Assembly: GCA_000703065.1 (NCBI GenBank)
Contig: JNLK01000001.1
Span: forward strand, 1,550,001 to 1,614,000
Source of the DNA: Lachnospiraceae bacterium AC2029
GTDB taxonomy: Bacteria; Bacillota; Clostridia; Lachnospirales; Lachnospiraceae
DNA length: 64,000 bases
Reading direction: 5' to 3'
In this document: positions 34,397 through 42,167 of the stretch, piece after piece
How the letters are laid out: every line of letters begins with the position of its first letter
Position numbering within the stretch: the stretch's first letter is position 1
Position numbers and translations under genes: made by a program
Notes under the pieces: generated by a model
What the model was told of the DNA's origin: nothing
The model's database searches: none
The model's input: the letters and a program-made list of their open reading frames with translations, nothing else

Positions 34397-36613
34397 ATGT
34401 TAGGTTACACCTCTTCTTCCATCATGAATTTCAGGAAATTCAAACGATTTCTCATCGTTTTTCTTTGTGTGTTCCTTATGCTGATTCCGGCGTTTTCATC
34501 CAAGGCCGCTACGGAAGACAATCCTGGCGAGGCACTCACGGTTGGTGTGCCCGCGGACCGCTGTCCTATCTTCTACGAGGATGCGGATACCGGGGAGATC
34601 GTTGGGATCGGCGTTGATCTCATGCGCACTGCGGCTAAGAAGGCCGGCTACAACGCTACATTCAAGGCTATAGAAGAAGCCACCCTGAAGGATGCGCTGG
34701 ACAATCCCGCCTATGACGTGATCCTGCCCTTCGGCAGCGCCATCACCAGCACCGGCGGCCAGGCCAGCATCGTCTCCGAGAATCTCATTCAGACACCGTT
34801 TACGCTGGTGACCGAGGGCCAGCACGACATGCCGCCCATAAATGAGCTGAAGATCGGTATGCTCCATTCCCTCAGCGGCGCGGCGGACACGGTGCATCAG
34901 CTTTATCCCGAGATCCAGATCACCATGTACGAAACCATGCAGGAATGCGTGCAGGCTCTTCGTTCCGACGAGGTAAATGCGCTGCTGCACAATTCCTACG
35001 TCTGGAGCTATGTCCTGCAGAAGCCCTCCTATTCGGATCTTACGGTTCAGCCCTCTTCCATGTTCTCCATGGATTTCCGTGTCGGGGCTGCGGATACCGA
35101 GAAAGGTCGCGACATCATCCAGCGTCTGAACGGCGGAATCGCCTCTCTGACGGATACGGAGCGGCAGGCCGTGATCCTGGATTACACCTCCCGCCGTCTG
35201 TATCGGATGGACTTCGGTGATTTTCTATACAAATATGGCGTTTTCATCCTTCTCATTCTCCTTCTCTTTGTGGCTCTGATCATCATCGGCGTGCAAAGGG
35301 TTCACTCCATTCGAAAAAAGAACGAAGAAAACCTCCAGCAGATGATCGATCACGATCCCCTGACCGGAGTTCTCAGCATGCGCGGCTTCCGGAAAAGAGT
35401 CGTGGAGCTTCTCAGCACCCATCCGGACACCCCGTACCTTCTGGCCTACGTAAATATCAAGAATTTCAAATATATCAATGACAGTCTGGGCTGGGATTCC
35501 GGTGACGATCTCCTGTGCTTCTGGGCGGATAAGACAAAGAAAACCCTGTCGAATCAGGAGACCATGTGCCGGATCAATGCCGACCGTTTCGCAGTCCTCC
35601 GCTGTGTCGGCGGCGAAGAGAAACTGAATTTCGATGACCATGAAGTAGTTGACTCCGTGCGGAATTATTTTCTGGATCAGGGTAAAGAAACCCGGGTCCA
35701 GATCTGCGGTGGCTTGTACGTCCTGACGCCGGAGGATTACCAGGAAATGGACGTGGACCACATGCTGGATCTTGCGCGTGTGGCTGAAAAGAAAGTCAGG
35801 GAAATGCGCAGCGACGGCTACGAATTCTACAACCCGCAGCAGTGGGAAAAGGGAAAACACATCGCCGAAGTCACCAACCGCCTTCCGGCAGCGCTGGAAG
35901 CCGGGGATATCCAGGTATGGTACCAGCCCCAGGTGGACTATGAAACCGGTAAGATCACCGGTGCAGAAGCCCTCTGCCGCTGGGATCATAAGAAGCTGGG
36001 CTGGCTGCAGCCCACGGACTTCATCTCCACCCTGGAAGAATCCGGCCTGATCTTCGACCTGGACAAATATGTCTGGGACAAGGTCTGCCAGGACCTCCAC
36101 CGCTGGAATGAGCAGGGCCATCGGCGTTTTATCTCCGTAAATGTCTCGCGCTGCGACATTCGCGAGGACCGCGACATACCGAAACATTTTCATGACCTGA
36201 TCAAACAATACGATCTGGACCCGGAGCAGCTTCGGATCGAGATCACCGAAACCGCCTACGCCGAGAACTCCGCCCTGCTGATCCGCACCACGGAGCAGCT
36301 GCGCGAATACGGCTTCCAGGTGGAAATGGATGACTTCGGCAGCGGCTACTCCTCCCTCCACATGCTGAAGGAAGTGCCCGTAGACCGGATCAAGCTGGAT
36401 CTCCGCTTCCTCACCGACGCCGGCGACCCCGAACGCGGCCGCATCATCATCGGCTACATGATCCGCATGATCCGCTCCCTGGGCATGCAGATGATCACCG
36501 AAGGCGTCGAAACCAAAGAACAAGCCGACTTCCTCTTCAGCCAGGGCAGCACCGAGATGCAGGGCTACTACTTCCACCGCCCCATGCCCGTCCAAGACTA
36601 CGAACAACTGTGA
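34397..36613 (+). CDS. Membrane-bound c-di-GMP phosphodiesterase with SBP sensor (SBP-GGDEF-EAL)
   Basis: 738 aa. N-terminal signal/membrane segment, then an extracytoplasmic SBP_bac_3-like sensor (about 45-255; LTVGVPADRCPIFYEDADTGEIVGIGVDLM), one membrane helix (about 270-295), a degenerate GGDEF domain (DPLTGVLSMRGF present, but NADRF in place of GGDEF) and an EAL domain (about 485-735). Catalytic EAL motifs are intact: GAEALCRW, SVNVSR, EITETAY, MDDFGSGYSS, ITEGVET and QGYYFHRP. It should hydrolyse c-di-GMP in response to a bound amino-acid-like ligand. GC-rich, monocistronic and flanked by two copies of palindrome C. Confidence 0.9.
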   Translation: MLGYTSSSIMNFRKFKRFLIVFLCVFLMLIPAFSSKAATEDNPGEALTVGVPADRCPIFYEDADTGEIVGIGVDLMRTAAKKAGYNATFKAIEEATLKDALDNPAYDVILPFGSAITSTGGQASIVSENLIQTPFTLVTEGQHDMPPINELKIGMLHSLSGAADTVHQLYPEIQITMYETMQECVQALRSDEVNALLHNSYVWSYVLQKPSYSDLTVQPSSMFSMDFRVGAADTEKGRDIIQRLNGGIASLTDTERQAVILDYTSRRLYRMDFGDFLYKYGVFILLILLLFVALIIIGVQRVHSIRKKNEENLQQMIDHDPLTGVLSMRGFRKRVVELLSTHPDTPYLLAYVNIKNFKYINDSLGWDSGDDLLCFWADKTKKTLSNQETMCRINADRFAVLRCVGGEEKLNFDDHEVVDSVRNYFLDQGKETRVQICGGLYVLTPEDYQEMDVDHMLDLARVAEKKVREMRSDGYEFYNPQQWEKGKHIAEVTNRLPAALEAGDIQVWYQPQVDYETGKITGAEALCRWDHKKLGWLQPTDFISTLEESGLIFDLDKYVWDKVCQDLHRWNEQGHRRFISVNVSRCDIREDRDIPKHFHDLIKQYDLDPEQLRIEITETAYAENSALLIRTTEQLREYGFQVEMDDFGSGYSSLHMLKEVPVDRIKLDLRFLTDAGDPERGRIIIGYMIRMIRSLGMQMITEGVETKEQADFLFSQGSTEMQGYYFHRPMPVQDYEQL

Positions 36614-36661: not shown

Positions 36662-37237
36662 CTACGGATTCAGGCACACTCCTGATTTGTTGAATTTACA
36701 CGTCTTCTTCCTTATCTTCAGCGTTCCTGTAACCATCTGTCCTAAGGTCTTCGTCTTAGGACTCAGATAATACTTCTTCTTGTCAATGGTCTGCCATCCG
36801 GTCTGCATCTGACCAAGAGTCTTATTCTTATCGCTGAAGAAGTACCACACCTTACCAACTTTAATCTTTCCGGTCTTCATCTCTCCGGTCTTCTTATCGA
36901 GGTAATATGTTTGTCCTTCCTTCTTTGTGAGGTTCACACCGGAACGGGAATCTACGAGCCGTTCTCTGTACTGGCGATCAGCTGCCTGGGCGTTGTAGTC
37001 ATACTTCGTTTGGATAGAACAGCGGCTACGTGCTTTATCACAACCGTTGCAGACATAAGGTGCACGTTTGATCTGCCTACATTCTTCTCTTTCAAAGCGA
37101 GGACAGACAGAGTTACATCTCAGGCAAGACTTACAGTACCTGTCACAGATTTCAATCTTATTGCAGGCATTGATCTTTTTGCACCGAAAACGGTGGACAC
37201 AGAAGTTGTGTGGATTGATGAGTACTATAATGAACAC
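36662..37237 (-). pseudogene. Chimeric frame: IS30 transposase fragment fused to wall-binding repeats
   Basis: 191 codons. The first ~105 are the Cys-rich N-terminal region of IS30-family transposases (RYCKSCLRCNSVCPRFE..., APYVCNGCDKARSRC, AADRQYRERLVDSRSGVNL) lacking both the HTH start and the DDE domain. The remaining ~85 are aromatic wall-binding repeats (KIGKVWYFFSD, TGWQTIDKKKYYL) ending SGVCLNP. The two parts join in frame at about NLTKKE-GQTYYL. This looks like the debris of an IS30 copy and a surface-protein gene fused by deletion; without a signal peptide the repeats cannot be exported. Confidence 0.75.
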
Positions 37238-37765: not shown

Positions 37766-37914
37766 GTAATTTATAAAACAGGATACACCGGTAACATGCT
37801 GAGAAAGAAAATACTAACGCCTTCAAGGAAAAGCATGAACCAGTCGAAGATTATCCATGACGAGTCTGTAAAAAAAACACAATCCTGTATCACCAGAACA
37901 ACACGAGGCGTCTT

Positions 37915-37939
37915 CCTATCACAAATTGGAAAACGCCTC
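37915..37939. terminator. Hairpin between converging small genes
   Basis: gaggcgt.ttcc / ggaa.acgcctc with an 11-base loop, weak T-tracts either side; plausible shared terminator for the 37256-37765 gene and the minus-strand peptide cluster. Confidence 0.4.
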
Positions 37940-37967: not shown

Positions 37968-38063
37968 TTACTTAAACGGGTTCCCACAGAAATAAACGTA
38001 ACCCATATATCCAAACTCTGCCACGAAAAGCGTAGCCCCAATTGCCATAAATGCTGTAAACAT
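37968..38063 (-). CDS. Tiny membrane peptide P5 (31 aa)
   Basis: ATG 38063 is preceded by AAAGGAG eight bases away. The peptide opens MFTAFMAIGATLFVAEFGY and ends CGNPFK: a single hydrophobic helix with an aromatic tail. Before the IS21 insertion its start lay 21 bases after the stop of P4, so the two were co-transcribed. See P1-P4 for the cluster. Confidence 0.55.
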   Translation of the reverse strand: MFTAFMAIGATLFVAEFGYMGYVYFCGNPFK

Positions 38064-38257
38064 ATGCATTTCTCCTTTCTCACATTAACCAAAAAGTACT
38101 ACTGTACGGGTCGGGTGAAAAAGGCCACACCCGGAGTCGCATAGAAAGGGCCATTTTCAGTCGGATAGAAACGGCCAAATAACAAAAAGAGAGGTCACTA
38201 CGCGTTCATCTCCTTGTATAATGATGGGTGCTAACGCATCAACATAGAAGGAGGACA

Positions 38258-39571
38258 ATGAACGATAAAGAACGTAATGACCTTCAACTTACTATATCAC
38301 ATGCGCTGCAAGAAATGGAAGCAGAAGCAGGTGACAAATTCGACTTATCGAAGGTCAATCTTGAAGAACTTAGACGCAGGACAGGGATTTCCCGAAAGAA
38401 GCTGCGCCTTATCAAGCAGAATGGATTTATAGTCAAACCTCACGGCCTGTCTGGCGCGAGGAAAAAGGATACCGTTCTTTCCGGTTATACAGAAACGATA
38501 GATACCCTTCTGCGTAGCGGAGTTTCTAATTCTATCGTTATCAAAGATCGAATCGAGGGTGATGGGTATGCAGGAGGACTCACACAGGTTAAGGATTATA
38601 TCTTGACCCATAAAGACTTGATTCCAGCTAAACGACACGCCGTGGCAGCTCAAGGTAACAGAGGAAGGCGGTATACATCAGAGCCTGGAGAATCCTTTCA
38701 GATGGATTGGGGATTCGTCAATGTCGATCATCCATCCGGAAACACCCAACAGGTCGCTTGTTTTGCGATGATCTGTCATCATTGTGGAGAACGGTATGTG
38801 GAGTTCTTTCCTAATGCAAAGCAGGAAAACCTGTTTATCGGTATGATACACGCGTTTAAGCGGATGGGAGTACCTCATCATGTGCTTACGGACAATATGA
38901 AAAGTGTTGTTGTTTGTCGCAACTCAGAAGGTCATCCGGTTTGGAACAACGAGTATGAGTCTTTTATGGTTGCAGTCGGTTTTGAAACCAGACTGTGTAA
39001 GCCACGGCATCCGTTCACAAAGGGTGCTGTAGAGCGGTTGGTAAAGTTTGTCAAAGATAACTTCATGGCAGGACGAACCTTTGGAACGATCACTGATTTA
39101 AATTATGAGGTTCTTCGTTGGTGTGACAGGCAGAATAATCGTTACCATGACGGCGTAGCCTGTGTTCCTCATGATGAGCATCAAAAGCACTGTTTTCCAG
39201 CTATAGAGGAACTTGATCTAAACAATACTGTCCGTCTCTATCTCTGGCCGGAGCGTCGCATTTCCTTCGATGGATTTGTAAACTATGAAGGACGTAGATT
39301 TGGAGTGCCTTATCGATACGCTGGTAGAGTTTGCCGTGTATCCAGACAAGATTTCACGCTTTATATCTACACACCTGATCTCAAGCAGAAACTGGCCGAG
39401 CATAATGTGACATGGAGCCGACGCGACAGCTTTTGTGAAGACCAGTATGCGACTGAACAACCGGAAGAATATCCATCCCAGACTGTGACTACAATCATTC
39501 ATCAGAACGATCCACCGGAGAACAAAGAAAATTTTGAGTTGTTCAACTTTGATCGGGAGGTGGAGCTGTGA
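38258..39571 (+). CDS. istA: IS21 transposase IstA
   Basis: 437 aa from ATG 38258 (GAAGGAGGACA). N-terminal HTH region, then a DDE integrase core: Asp in FQMDWGFV, Asp in HHVLTDNMKS, Glu in PFTKGAVERLVKFVKDNF. The protein catalyses cut and strand transfer of the element. Its TGA overlaps the istB ATG by one base, typical of IS21. No frameshift seen, so the element may be active. Confidence 0.95.
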   Translation: MNDKERNDLQLTISHALQEMEAEAGDKFDLSKVNLEELRRRTGISRKKLRLIKQNGFIVKPHGLSGARKKDTVLSGYTETIDTLLRSGVSNSIVIKDRIEGDGYAGGLTQVKDYILTHKDLIPAKRHAVAAQGNRGRRYTSEPGESFQMDWGFVNVDHPSGNTQQVACFAMICHHCGERYVEFFPNAKQENLFIGMIHAFKRMGVPHHVLTDNMKSVVVCRNSEGHPVWNNEYESFMVAVGFETRLCKPRHPFTKGAVERLVKFVKDNFMAGRTFGTITDLNYEVLRWCDRQNNRYHDGVACVPHDEHQKHCFPAIEELDLNNTVRLYLWPERRISFDGFVNYEGRRFGVPYRYAGRVCRVSRQDFTLYIYTPDLKQKLAEHNVTWSRRDSFCEDQYATEQPEEYPSQTVTTIIHQNDPPENKENFELFNFDREVEL

Positions 39572-40368
39572 TGGAACAATCCGTGTATGACCTGATTGAC
39601 ACGTATTGCAAGACATTGAAGGTGGATTTATCATCAGCTGAAATGGCAACCTTTACGGAAAACCATTCATTAACAAAGGAACAGATCACAGCTATTTCAA
39701 AGTTGTTTCAGTACCTTGGAAAGAAGAAACACCAAACCATTATCGACACTCTGCTCAAGCTCAGCAGACTTCCCCTTAAGGTCCCGAAAACCTTTGAGGG
39801 ATACGATTTCAGCCGTATCCATAGTAAGGATTCGGCAGCTGTTGAAAATCTTCCCATGCTTTCAGAAATACATGCTGGAAAGAACATTGCACTGATCGGC
39901 CCGCCCGGAGTAGGAAAAACTCATCTTGCAGAAGCGTATGGACGCGCCTGCTGTATGGAAGGGTTGAAAGCTTATTTTCTAAAGGCATCCGAACTGAAAG
40001 AAAAGTTTATGGTTGCAAGAAAATTCGGTCGAGAAGCAAATGTAATCAACGGTTTGGTGAAACCTTCATGTCTTATCATCGACGAAATCGGACGTTGTGT
40101 TTTTGACCGTGAAGCAACAAGTATGTTCTTTGATATGATAGACCGTCGTTACGAAAAAGAAGGTGCTAACTGCATGATTTTTACAAGTAACAAACAGCCA
40201 AACGGCTGGCAGGAATTCTTTCGATGTGACGATGATCTTCGAGCGGCACTTGATCGTTTATTTGACAACGCAAAAGTTATCACCTTCAAGGGTGAAAGCT
40301 ATCGTGGTCGCAAGAGAGAAGTCCTGGCAGTTGAAGCTGGTACTTCGGTCGCATCAAGAACGAATTAA
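39571..40368 (+). CDS. istB: IS21 helper ATPase IstB
   Basis: About 265 aa from ATG 39571 (a GTG one codon earlier is also possible). DnaA/DnaC-like AAA+ protein: Walker A GPPGVGKTHLAEAYG, Walker B LIIDEIGR, sensor FTSNKQP. It selects target DNA and stimulates IstA. Confidence 0.95.
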   Translation: MEQSVYDLIDTYCKTLKVDLSSAEMATFTENHSLTKEQITAISKLFQYLGKKKHQTIIDTLLKLSRLPLKVPKTFEGYDFSRIHSKDSAAVENLPMLSEIHAGKNIALIGPPGVGKTHLAEAYGRACCMEGLKAYFLKASELKEKFMVARKFGREANVINGLVKPSCLIIDEIGRCVFDREATSMFFDMIDRRYEKEGANCMIFTSNKQPNGWQEFFRCDDDLRAALDRLFDNAKVITFKGESYRGRKREVLAVEAGTSVASRTN

Positions 40369-40471
40369 CGCATAATAAAAATGTTAATGTTGATGCGTTG
40401 GCCCTTTTAACCCGGCTGGAATTGGCCCTTTTTACCCGACTCTGAATGGCCCTTTCCGCCCGGCCCTAACA

Positions 40472-40526
40472 CTACTACTGCCAGAGCAATCGCAATCGAT
40501 GTTGCAACAACCATTCCAGTTACCAT
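40472..40526 (-). pseudogene. Tiny membrane peptide P4, interrupted by IS21
   Basis: ATG 40526 with AAGGAGG nine bases upstream reads MVTGMVVATSIAIALAV and then enters the IS21 right end. The missing end is at 38085-38102 across the element: removing the IS and one CTAC copy restores a 22-aa frame ending VVVLFG and stop. The peptide was a single hydrophobic helix with no charged residue. Confidence 0.6.
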
Positions 40527-40594
40527 ATTGTCGTTCCTCCTTATCTTCGTATATCATCTCGTTTCTGTATATTATCATGAAACTCTTGTCATTC

Positions 40595-40675
40595 TTACTT
40601 GCTAAAAGCGCTGATGAGTGCTGATCCCCATATAATGCCGAGCGACACTCCGCCAACAATCAATACTGCTGTCAT
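40595..40675 (-). CDS. Tiny membrane peptide P3 (26 aa)
   Basis: ATG 40675 preceded by AAAGGAGG at seven bases. The peptide opens MTAVLIVGGVSLGIIWG and ends SAFSK: one hydrophobic helix with a C-terminal lysine. P4 starts 68 bases after its stop. The 183-base stretch between P2 and P3 shows a GTAAAA/TTTTAC hairpin and a weak basic frame (MKRLRNPISG) that I do not call. Confidence 0.6.
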   Translation of the reverse strand: MTAVLIVGGVSLGIIWGSALISAFSK

Positions 40676-40858
40676 GGTAATTCCTCCTTTCCTGAGAGTA
40701 AAATCTATCTTTTACGATGTTGATTCATTTTTCATCCCTGAAATCGGATTCCTCAACCGTTTCATCAACCACCTGCCATACCCACCGTATAACCTGCGAT
40801 CGTTACTCAGACTGTGTTATCTGAATCCTTTATGTCAGGTATTAGCTGTACATTTTTT

Positions 40859-40933
40859 TTAGGATTCTGTCTTCCTGCTCTTCACATACATCACGATTAT
40901 GGATAAGACGATTGCTATAATTGTTGTATACAT
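40859..40933 (-). CDS. Tiny membrane peptide P2 (24 aa)
   Basis: ATG 40933 with AGGAGG eight bases upstream. The peptide opens MYTTIIAIVLSIIVMYV and ends KSRKTES: one hydrophobic helix followed by a basic tail, the orientation of an N-out single-pass peptide. It has its own promoter (40997-41025) with a leader related to that of P1. Confidence 0.6.
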   Translation of the reverse strand: MYTTIIAIVLSIIVMYVKSRKTES

Positions 40934-40996
40934 ATTAAGTACCTCCTATCTGTGTACTTCCCCTGCCGTTCTGGGGTTTTCTTATGTTCTGTACGC

Positions 40997-41025
40997 AGTA
41001 TAGCAAAGCCACAACAACAAACTCA
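40997..41025 (-). promoter_or_regulatory. Promoter of peptide P2
   Basis: Minus strand extended -10 TGCTATACT (-10 at 40997-41002) with a poor -35. The bases that follow (CAGAACA.A.GAAAAC) match the leader behind the P1 promoter, so the two upstream regions are duplicates. Confidence 0.5.
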
Positions 41026-41106
41026 CAACAAGACGAAAATCTTTTTCAAAAAAAGATCCTGGCGGCGTACCTGCCGTCAGGAATCCTCATATTATCCATC
41101 TTCTTT

Positions 41107-41175
41107 TTAAAGTACAGTCACATACACTACCATGATTCCTACTAAACATGCTGCGCAAATTCCACATAACAACAT
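41107..41175 (-). CDS. Tiny membrane peptide P1 (22 aa)
   Basis: ATG 41175 with GGGAGG eight bases upstream. The peptide opens MLLCGICAACLVG and ends VYVTVL: one hydrophobic helix with three cysteines and no charge. First gene of the cluster, with a 70-base leader from the promoter at 41246-41274. A longer frame to 41289 crosses that promoter and lacks a Shine-Dalgarno, so the short form is preferred. Confidence 0.6.
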   Translation of the reverse strand: MLLCGICAACLVGIMVVYVTVL

Positions 41176-41245
41176 AAGCTTGTCCTCCCTTCGAATTTTG
41201 GTTTCCGGTTCCTTTTTCCCGGGTGTTTTCCTTTGTTCTGATTGC

Positions 41246-41274
41246 AGTATATCAAGGCTTAAAGGAATGGGTAA
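41246..41274 (-). promoter_or_regulatory. Promoter of peptide P1
   Basis: Minus strand -10 TATACT (41246-41251) in the extended form TGATATACT, 17-base spacer, weak -35 TTACCC (41269-41274). Confidence 0.5.
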
Positions 41275-41296
41275 AAAGTAACATCTCATAACTCCG

Positions 41297-41334
41297 GGCT
41301 CCCTGCATTTCCCTTTGATGCAGGGAGCCTTTTT
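41297..41334 (+). terminator. Plus-strand terminator without a matching gene
   Basis: Perfect 12-bp stem GGCTCCCTGCAT / ATGCAGGGAGCC followed by TTTTT on the plus strand. The nearest plus-strand gene is istB, 930 bases away, so it would end either IS21 read-through or an RNA antisense to the peptide genes. Confidence 0.75.
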
Positions 41335-41342
41335 GTAGAACC

Positions 41343-41378
41343 AAAAAAAGACCCCAGTTCAATCGAACCGAGGCCTTT
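41343..41378 (-). terminator. Terminator of the DUF4097 operon
   Basis: Stem AAAG.CCTC.GTTC / GAAC.GGGG.CTTT followed on the minus strand by seven T. It insulates the peptide cluster from the genes upstream. Confidence 0.75.
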
Positions 41379-41396
41379 AGGATCACTTTTTTTCTT

Positions 41397-42167
41397 CTAT
41401 ACGAACTGAATTTTGATTGACCCGCTGGTAACTTTTACATTCAGTTCCTTACCGCCATTTCGGGAATTCGTCAGGTTATTCATACCGGTTTTTGTACCTG
41501 CCAGAATAGAGTAATCCTCTTCTTTTCCAATGATCGATCCTTTAACAGAACCACTGGTAGATTTGAGATGAATACTCCCACCCGTCTTCAGGTTTTCAAA
41601 ATGAATTCCCCCGGATGTATTCCCGGAGAGAAATGCCCCTTCTGTTTGAAGATCGTTCACTCTGATCAGACCGGACTTATTCATGACACTGACGTCTTTG
41701 GTTGCTTTGACCTCAGAAAGCTTTATGGAGCCACTTTTATTATCAATCGTGATATTCCCCTGCGACACAACATCGGACAACCGGATTAAGCCGGAGGTGC
41801 ATCCGATCGAGATATTCTCTGTATGGATATCGGTAAGTTCTATCTTCCCACTTGTACATTTCACATCCATCGAACCTGCGAAATCCCGCGGAACAACCAC
41901 TTCAATGGTTGTGTTTTTAAATGTATAGTGTATTCCACCCAGAATGCCTCTGCTCATGTCGAATGCAAGTGTCAGCTTCCCATCCGCTTCGGTGCAGCTA
42001 TACTCATACTTTCCCGGATTTTCCCAGTAAGAGATTCTCACACGCATCACATCTCCGCTGGTTATACGGATATCATCTGTCTTAGAATCAATCCTCAACT
42101 GGTCTATACGTTCACTGCATTCATATTCGCGTTTTACATACTTTGACTTCATCAAACCGTCCATCAT
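41397..42167 (-). CDS. DUF4097 family beta-helix protein
   Basis: 256 aa; the second ATG (42164) has better spacing to GGGGGA. Residues about 110-256 are repeated 20-residue beta rungs (SGLIRLSDV, SGSIKLSEV, SGLIRVNDL, SGGIHFENL, SGSVKGSII, SGSIKIQFV), the right-handed helix of DUF4097 'putative adhesin' proteins. No signal peptide, so probably cytoplasmic or membrane-peripheral. Firmicutes members sit in envelope-stress operons (LiaG-like). Co-transcribed with the small membrane protein upstream (12-base gap). Confidence 0.8.
   Translation of the reverse strand: MMDGLMKSKYVKREYECSERIDQLRIDSKTDDIRITSGDVMRVRISYWENPGKYEYSCTEADGKLTLAFDMSRGILGGIHYTFKNTTIEVVVPRDFAGSMDVKCTSGKIELTDIHTENISIGCTSGLIRLSDVVSQGNITIDNKSGSIKLSEVKATKDVSVMNKSGLIRVNDLQTEGAFLSGNTSGGIHFENLKTGGSIHLKSTSGSVKGSIIGKEEDYSILAGTKTGMNNLTNSRNGGKELNVKVTSGSIKIQFV

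What the first reader, a model, noticed from the sequence alone, without database searches (positions are those of the whole stretch)
37968..41175. Cluster of five tiny hydrophobic peptides (22-31 aa), split by an IS21 element
On the minus strand, five consecutive mini-genes (41107-41175, 40859-40933, 40595-40675, the interrupted 40472-40526/38085-38102, and 37968-38063) each begin with ATG 7-9 bases after a near-perfect Shine-Dalgarno and encode a single hydrophobic helix with almost no charge. They are not repeats of one sequence, so it is a set, not a tandem duplication, although the P1 and P2 leaders are related (TGNTATACTGC, then CAGAACA..GAAAAC). IS21 landed in P4; deleting it and one CTAC copy restores a clean 22-codon frame. 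Possible roles: type I toxin array, small-subunit regulators of a membrane complex, multi-peptide leaderless bacteriocin or envelope-stress peptides (a DUF4097 operon is adjacent). I know of no described family with this layout.
Basis: partly seen in the sequence, partly recalled or inferred. Interest (0 to 1): 0.82.

Follow-up and report, generated by a model that had tools for sequence, protein, structure and literature searches.

The report
Two-component-controlled array of tiny membrane peptides
A gut bacterium carries a row of extremely short genes, each predicted to make a single greasy helix, behind the same kind of switch that precedes similar mini-genes and other proteins elsewhere in its genome and in related species; they look like real genes of an undescribed membrane-peptide set whose job is still unknown.

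Summary
The five mini-ORFs are present as described, and no other ORF in the 64-kb window fits the same criteria. They look like real genes. P2 (then P3, P4, P5) sits behind a promoter with two box copies 11 bp apart, the second starting about 17 nt before a -10. Models of this promoter led to further tiny hydrophobic genes just behind it in two other species of the genus, one a 31-codon, 52%-identical counterpart of P5. A four-peptide array in a third species, G010, lies beside a histidine kinase and response regulator; a further set, T1-T3, lies near the related HK1/RR1 pair in the own genome. The promoter layout resembles that published for SARP activators, but the regulator's output domain could not be assigned. 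DUF4097 is incidental: relatives carry other genes at this site. Antisense promoter-like sites were not in excess, leaders not unusually folded, no exporter noticed, no known family matched. Most likely these are membrane-acting output peptides of a two-component system; that function is inferred. Seen so far in 4 of 61 genus genomes, a lower bound.

The parts
41107..41175 (-). P1, 22-aa hydrophobic mini-gene, GGAGG Shine-Dalgarno
41226..41291 (-). P1 promoter remnant: -10, start region and leader match the set, but the DNA upstream of the -10 is the tail of a former flavodoxin gene, so the two boxes are missing (by eye)
   Evidence: R2 match 5.0e-8 (P1 was in the training set); window 41256-41483 99% identical to G019 L006 over 228 bp; flavodoxin by Pfam
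40859..40933 (-). P2, 24-aa mini-gene
40977..41051 (-). promoter of P2 and, it is inferred, of P3-P5: TGTTGT-N5-TGTTGT-N11-TATACT, then CAGAACA
   Evidence: R1 1.1e-17, R2 8.5e-14, P2 being in the training set of both; 11-bp period
40595..40675 (-). P3, 26-aa mini-gene; similar peptides T3 (own genome), G035:C195 and Q3 (G010)
40472..40526 (-). P4, start part of a mini-gene cut by IS21; similar to the G019:C95 peptide
   Evidence: G019 peptide
38085..38102 (-). P4, end part beyond the IS21 element, including one copy of the 4-bp target duplication
   Evidence: read by eye
38103..40471 (+). IS21-family element, istA 38228-39571 and istB 39568-40368
   Evidence: ends read by eye
37968..38063 (-). 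P5, 31-aa mini-gene with a 31-codon counterpart in G035 behind the same type of promoter
37905..37939 (-). hairpin after P5, without a run of T; possible transcript end
   Evidence: read by eye; not listed by the terminator scan

Best explanation
The cluster is a set of five real mini-genes: P1 alone, and P2-P3-P4-P5 probably as one transcript, now cut by IS21. They belong to a regulon run by a paralogous group of two-component systems. Proposed chain: a membrane histidine kinase senses an unknown signal (inferred); its receiver-type response regulator binds two boxes 11 bp apart that overlap the -35 region (the boxes are shown; the binding and which regulator binds are inferred); a short transcript is made in which every mini-gene has its own strong ribosome site (ribosome sites shown, transcript inferred); several different single-helix, unprocessed peptides are made together and enter the membrane (hydrophobicity shown, location inferred). 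Most likely job, inferred: output peptides acting on membranes, the cell's own or a neighbour's, co-induced with apparently secreted proteins. The confidence given covers 'real genes, controlled by this two-box promoter and a two-component system of this group'. For the membrane-effector role alone I would give about 0.35.
For: Rarity: five qualifying ORFs in 64 kb, all in this cluster; 499 of 500 shuffles held none. Promoter: over all 37 strong sites the 7-nt box repeats itself with a mean of 6.05 of 7 matches at a shift of 11 and 1.6-2.7 at other shifts from 6 to 20; 31 of 37 sites have at least 6 of 7 at shift 11 (a hand-picked 28 gave 6.25). Predictions not trained on: R1 led to a tiny hydrophobic gene in G019:C95 and a P5 counterpart in G035:C186; R2 led to one in G035:C195. 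Linkage to regulators: the Q1-Q4 array lies directly behind an RR-HK pair in G010:C14, and a 30-aa peptide directly before an HK-RR pair in G010:C21 (HK domains, RR); T1 starts 1.7 kb beyond HK1-RR1 in the own genome. Over 893,476 bases fetched, 31 such ORFs occur on both strands; 12 lie within 500 nt behind one of 37 promoter sites, stretches that make up 1% of the strand-bases (partly circular, since six of the seven peptide promoters were in the training set of R2). P5 versus G035: same length, 16 of 31 residues identical, differences by codon position 11/5/15. Published SARP promoters have direct repeats 11 or 22 bp apart, the last one 8 bp from the -10 (PMC10936776, passages).
Against: The regulator's output domain matched nothing in the PDB by profile and Trans_reg_C only at E 0.079, below its cut-off, in one of three homologues. 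G035 holds two peptide genes with such promoters, but its only regulator match at E 1e-30 is 34% identical. No HK1 or RR1 relative lies in the window or in the stretches fetched around the G035 and G019 peptides. 30 of 37 promoter sites have no such peptide within 500 nt, so peptides are a minor part of the regulon. The P5 codon pattern is suggestive only (31 differences; chi-square about 4.9 on 2 df, hand calculation; 15 of 22 changed codons are non-synonymous). Peptides were seen in only 4 of 61 genus genomes; the P5 profile hit none of the other 391 sampled genomes of the order. No evidence of expression was available. Small-xxx-small motifs are not enriched (329 of 2000 shuffles reach the count).
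Confidence: 0.62

Rival explanations
1. The peptides are feedback or accessory subunits that bind their neighbouring histidine kinases (or another membrane complex) and tune them, like known small regulators of sensor kinases (MgrB-PhoQ, recalled).
For: An array or single peptide lies next to HK/RR pairs at G010:C14 and G010:C21 and T1 near HK1-RR1; single uncharged helices suit helix-helix contacts in the membrane.
Against: No relative of HK1 or RR1 was found by tblastn at E 1e-3 in the window or in the stretches around G035:C186, G035:C195 and G019:C95; four different peptides in one array fit a single partner poorly (inference); small-xxx-small motifs not enriched.
Confidence: 0.22
2. They are type-I-like toxic peptides that depolarise the producer's own membrane when induced.
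For: Size and hydrophobicity match short membrane type I toxins such as IbsC (19 aa) and ShoB (26 aa) as described in PMC8309996 (passages).
Against: That review defines type I systems by an antisense RNA; promoter-like sites on both strands are no more frequent than in shuffles (4 found against a mean of 6.6, two of them on the opposite strand; 2 against 1.9, none on the opposite strand), no Rfam match in the window, and the leaders of eight genes show no clearly unusual folding (z from -1.81 to 0.80). Several peptides seem to be made from one message with strong ribosome sites (inference).
Confidence: 0.15
3. They are peptide signals: exported or trimmed peptides sensed by the neighbouring kinases.
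For: Linkage to HK/RR pairs; short hydrophobic peptide signals exist in streptococci (PMC7564271, start of abstract in the listing).
Against: No exporter or protease gene noticed beside the arrays (no dedicated search); many different peptides per array; streptococcal SHPs act through Rgg regulators rather than kinases (same abstract).
Confidence: 0.08
4. The frames are chance or decayed sequence, or non-functional leftovers of moved promoters.
For: The P1 promoter is truncated and P4 is split; narrow distribution.
Against: Shuffle test, a counterpart with frame and length kept in G035, repeated finds behind the promoter.
Confidence: 0.03

Closest known systems
psm-alpha operon of staphylococci under AgrA (recalled; search listing only)
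   Same: several short unprocessed peptides, each with its own ribosome site, behind a promoter controlled by a two-component response regulator
   Different: the peptides here have low hydrophobic moments (0.03-0.29, no yardstick run) and are nearly uncharged; the promoter is a two-box type with 11-bp spacing; no dedicated exporter noticed
SARP-type activators and their promoters (AfsR, DnrI)
   Same: direct repeats one DNA turn (11 bp) apart, close to the -10 (PMC10936776 passages)
   Different: here the regulator is a receiver-domain two-component regulator; its output domain could not be assigned; the organism is not an actinomycete
Ibs/ShoB and other membrane type I toxins
   Same: short single hydrophobic helices, poorly conserved (PMC8309996 passages)
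   Different: no antisense partner seen; several peptides in a row, apparently in one transcript; activator-type promoter
Leaderless bacteriocins (e.g. aureocin A70, recalled)
   Same: several short peptides without leader
   Different: net charge only -1 to +2, no immunity or export genes noticed beside them

Membership tests
SARP-type promoter/activator | direct repeats 11 (or 22) bp apart, close to the -10 | tested here: met
   shift 11 gives 6.05 of 7 matches over 37 sites; second box starts about 17 nt before the -10
SARP-type promoter/activator | regulator with OmpR-type DNA-binding domain plus BTA domain | tested here: inconclusive
   Trans_reg_C E 0.079 (below cut-off) in one of three homologues; no PDB profile hit
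Type I toxin-antitoxin | antisense RNA antitoxin | tested here: inconclusive
   promoter-like sites not above shuffles; expression data needed
Type I toxin-antitoxin | hydrophobic peptide under 60 aa with one membrane helix | tested here: met
   (hydropathy only, no membrane predictor run)
Phenol-soluble modulins | amphipathic helix | tested here: not met
   whole-peptide moments 0.03-0.29 over 16 peptides; no yardstick peptide used
Phenol-soluble modulins | short unprocessed peptides under direct response-regulator control | not testable with these tools
   architecture fits; binding needs an experiment
Leaderless bacteriocin | cationic peptide with neighbouring export/immunity genes | tested here: inconclusive
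   net charge -1 to +2; no such genes noticed next to the G010 array, by gene calls only

The most novel reading that the evidence does not exclude
A new class of multi-peptide system: rapidly changing arrays of leaderless single-helix micro-peptides that form the membrane-acting output of a family of duplicated two-component systems, each paralogue using its own box word at the same 11-bp spacing, so that arrays can be moved and rewired between regulators.
Probability: 0.35. Interest if true: 0.78.

Novelty: new variant of a known kind. Interest (0 to 1): 0.62.

Why it matters
Genes of 20-31 codons are easily missed by annotation. Here a promoter signature, not the peptide sequence, finds them, which gives a handle for discovering fast-evolving micro-peptides. 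It also suggests receiver-type regulators with SARP-like promoters outside actinomycetes, with a family of duplicated kinase/regulator pairs and distinct box words: a natural test bed for how regulator and box change together. If the peptides act on membranes, they would be a multi-peptide counterpart of the staphylococcal modulins in gut anaerobes.

Tried and rejected
Rfam on the window: no match at gathering scores. P5 against plasmid and phage records: one chance-level hit (E 8) and none. P1-P4 DNA against both collections: no match. Ten peptides to Pfam (two weak hits, E 0.14 and 0.55), three to NCBIfam and two to PADLOC (none). Small-xxx-small motif as a packing signal: not enriched. A link to DUF4097: rejected. 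Neighbourhoods fetched for more distant regulators (five from other genera, fifteen from the genus, own genome included): three ORFs of the tiny type, two overlapping longer genes and one with poor spacing, none behind one of the 37 promoter sites. R2 hits at E 1e-5 in other genera (3 genomes, 4 places): three precede frames of 187-292 aa, one nothing recognisable; no tiny peptides. The P3-like profile A9 recovered three of its four own rows and missed the fourth, Q3 in G010, so negative counts from such short profiles are lower bounds. NCBIfam gave the 550-aa protein behind one promoter weak hits to coiled-coil families and to two alpha-pore-forming families (E 0.013 and 0.022, far below cut-offs): not used.
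Full report
What is there. The window is bases 1,550,001-1,614,000 of a 3.86-Mb one-contig genome. The five minus-strand frames exist at the stated places. Under one fixed set of criteria the whole window has five such ORFs and they are these five; 499 of 500 dinucleotide shuffles of the 1,012-bp cluster DNA have none and one has one, against four observed at the stricter setting used there. IS21 sits in P4 (istA/istB by Pfam), with a 4-bp target duplication read.

The key: a shared promoter. The same element recurs in the genome before other genes. A sequence model R1 built from seven copies found 22 places at E up to 10 in the own genome; the six best, at E below 1e-11, are all from its training set. 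In the genus 18 of 61 genomes, own one included, had a match at E 0.001; of the 26 places outside the own genome I read the DNA behind 21. A second model R2 from 15 copies matched 46 of 61 genus genomes at E 0.02, many of them weakly. Anatomy: a box such as TGTTGT, TGTAAG or TTGCAAAG, the same box again 11 bp on, a -10 about 17 nt after the second box starts, and in many sites a start region like CAGAAC. Over all 37 sites that reach E 1e-5 in the fetched DNA, the box agrees with itself at a shift of 11 in 6.05 of 7 positions on average, against 1.6-2.7 at other shifts; 31 of 37 reach at least 6 of 7. A hand-picked 28 of them gave 6.25. A published description of SARP activators gives repeats separated by 11 or 22 bp with the last one 8 bp from the -10 (PMC10936776, passages seen).

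What else the promoter precedes. In the own genome it stands before proteins with signal-peptide-like starts, judged by eye (for example 2,550,463-2,552,115 and 1,205,510-1,204,806), and before T1. Next to the 2.55-Mb sites lie HK1 (His_kinase and HATPase domains) and RR1 (receiver domain, 261 aa). A paralogous pair, HK3/RR3, lies about 16 kb away beside a promoter whose box GTRACA is repeated four times at 11 bp (read by eye from L036). RR1 has matches in 43 of 61 genus genomes at E 1e-30, six in the own genome. The C-terminal domain of RR1 was not assigned: one of three homologues showed Trans_reg_C at E 0.079, and a PDB profile search gave nothing.

More tiny peptides. Behind promoters found by R1: in G019:C95 a 23-aa peptide resembling P4; in G035:C186 a 31-aa peptide matching P5 in 16 of 31 positions. 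DNA differences between P5 and its counterpart fall 11/5/15 on codon positions 1/2/3, with 7 synonymous and 15 non-synonymous changed codons, which is coding-like but not strong. Behind an R2 site: a 26-aa P3-like peptide in G035:C195. By scanning neighbourhoods of RR1 relatives: four tandem peptides of 20-26 aa, each with AAGGAGG or GGAGG, directly after an RR-HK pair in G010:C14, with two boxes and a -10 in front, and a 30-aa peptide just before an HK-RR pair in G010:C21, with two boxes seen by eye. In the own genome T1 (23 aa) and, beyond an inserted AbiE-type pair, T3 (27 aa); T2 (30 aa, weaker ribosome site) was read by eye. Across 77 fetched stretches (893,476 bases; L177 left out as an overlap) 31 ORFs fit the criteria, and 12 of them lie within 500 nt behind 7 of 37 promoter sites. 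Six of those seven promoters had been used to build R2, so the tiny probability printed there overstates the case; the three finds not trained on are the cleaner evidence. Of the 19 others, P5, T3 and the G010:C21 peptide belong to the set by context, and ten of the remaining 16 were flagged as overlapping longer frames.

Conservation limits. P5-type: 2 of 61 genus genomes and 1 of 392 sampled order genomes, that one being the own genome. P3-type: three places in two genomes at E below 1e-10, all rows of the query; its fourth row was missed. R2 at E 1e-5 in a family sample: 4 of 299 genomes including the own one, with no tiny peptides behind the four foreign sites. In neighbourhoods of 20 more distant regulators no array was seen. 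The whole genomes could not be scanned for tiny ORFs, so 4 of 61 genomes with peptides is a lower bound.

Origin of the window cluster. Upstream of the P1 -10, the DNA is the 3' end of a flavodoxin gene that G019 has complete (Flavodoxin_4), followed there by the same terminator and the last part of the DUF4097 gene; 228 bp are 99% identical, window 41256-41483. P1 thus sits at a junction: it kept the -10 and leader but lost both boxes; a -35-like TTTACC at 18 nt may replace them. The stretch from the terminator into the P2 promoter is 87% identical over about 55 bp to DNA before the gene at 2.55 Mb, which suggests that the cluster was copied or moved from the RR1 neighbourhood. In the near relative L020 (DUF4097 99% identical) the same place holds a small peptide gene and a radical-SAM/SPASM gene. 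The DUF4097 neighbour is therefore incidental.

What the peptides are like. Sixteen peptides: net charge -1 to +2, GRAVY 0.79 to 2.60, hydrophobic moment 0.03 to 0.29. This suggests membrane-spanning rather than surface-lying helices. Ten were compared with Pfam (two weak hits, E 0.14 and 0.55) and three with NCBIfam (none). Leaders of eight genes are not clearly unusual in folding (z -1.81 to 0.80). Promoter-like sites are not above shuffles.

Mechanism and verdict. Shown: rarity, ribosome sites, two-box promoter, recurrence in relatives, linkage of some arrays to kinase/regulator pairs. Inferred: that this group of regulators binds the boxes, that P2-P5 share a transcript, that the peptides enter the membrane, and that they act as output on membranes. 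Against it: peptides are behind only 7 of 37 sites, G035 has no close RR1 relative, and no kinase or regulator of this type lies beside the window cluster. Literature seen: PMC10936776 and PMC8309996 (passages); PMC7564271 and others in search listings only. Searches for a description of such a set were made; none of the listed titles or abstract starts describes it. Statements about psm operons, MgrB and aureocin are recalled.

Noticed in passing
L020:1317-3062 (MAG of sheep-rumen Eubacterium sp.): At the same site beside DUF4097 this near relative has an 80-aa peptide gene with a double-glycine-like motif (no Pfam match; Nif11-like by recall) followed by a radical-SAM/SPASM gene: looks like a modified-peptide operon.
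   Followed up: partly
G000:C1:2557500-2558778 (L048 end / L049:131-775): An AbiE-type pair (AbiEii by PADLOC E 2e-80; partner by recall) sits between T2 and T3, as if inserted into the T array.
   Followed up: partly
G000:C1:2130842-2133200 (L046): A histidine kinase-like gene next to an unusual regulator that by eye carries an XRE-type helix-turn-helix in front of a receiver domain, near a TTGCAAAG-type promoter.
   Followed up: no
G000:C1:1209653-1210831, 2555424-2556668, 2561272-2562516: Three related proteins (27-38% identical, each with an HxxxDG motif; condensation or acyltransferase-like by recall) lie near promoter sites of this regulon; Pfam and NCBIfam gave nothing for the one tested.
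   Followed up: partly
window 40700-40830 and L007/L081 (G024:C259): The stretch before P3 is 77% identical over 86 bp to DNA behind a promoter of this type in G024, with a shared reading frame without an ATG (by eye); nature unknown.
   Followed up: partly
L048:18923-18975: A second, weak promoter match (E 0.073) inside the T1 leader, followed by a TTG frame that by eye resembles the end of P5: possibly a decayed member.
   Followed up: no
L058, L060, L071: Related two-box promoters (TGTTGCAC or TGTTACAC words) precede small membrane proteins with signal-like starts in other species, suggesting a wider family of such regulators.
   Followed up: no
L258, L259, L260 (other genera): Two-box promoters with words like TGTTGGACA (TGCTGGACA, TGTTGGACA) at the same 11-bp spacing by eye, before larger proteins or nothing recognisable.
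   Followed up: no
window 34397-36613: A protein with solute-binding, GGDEF and EAL domains, and a choline-binding-repeat fragment at 36662-37237 next to it.
   Followed up: no
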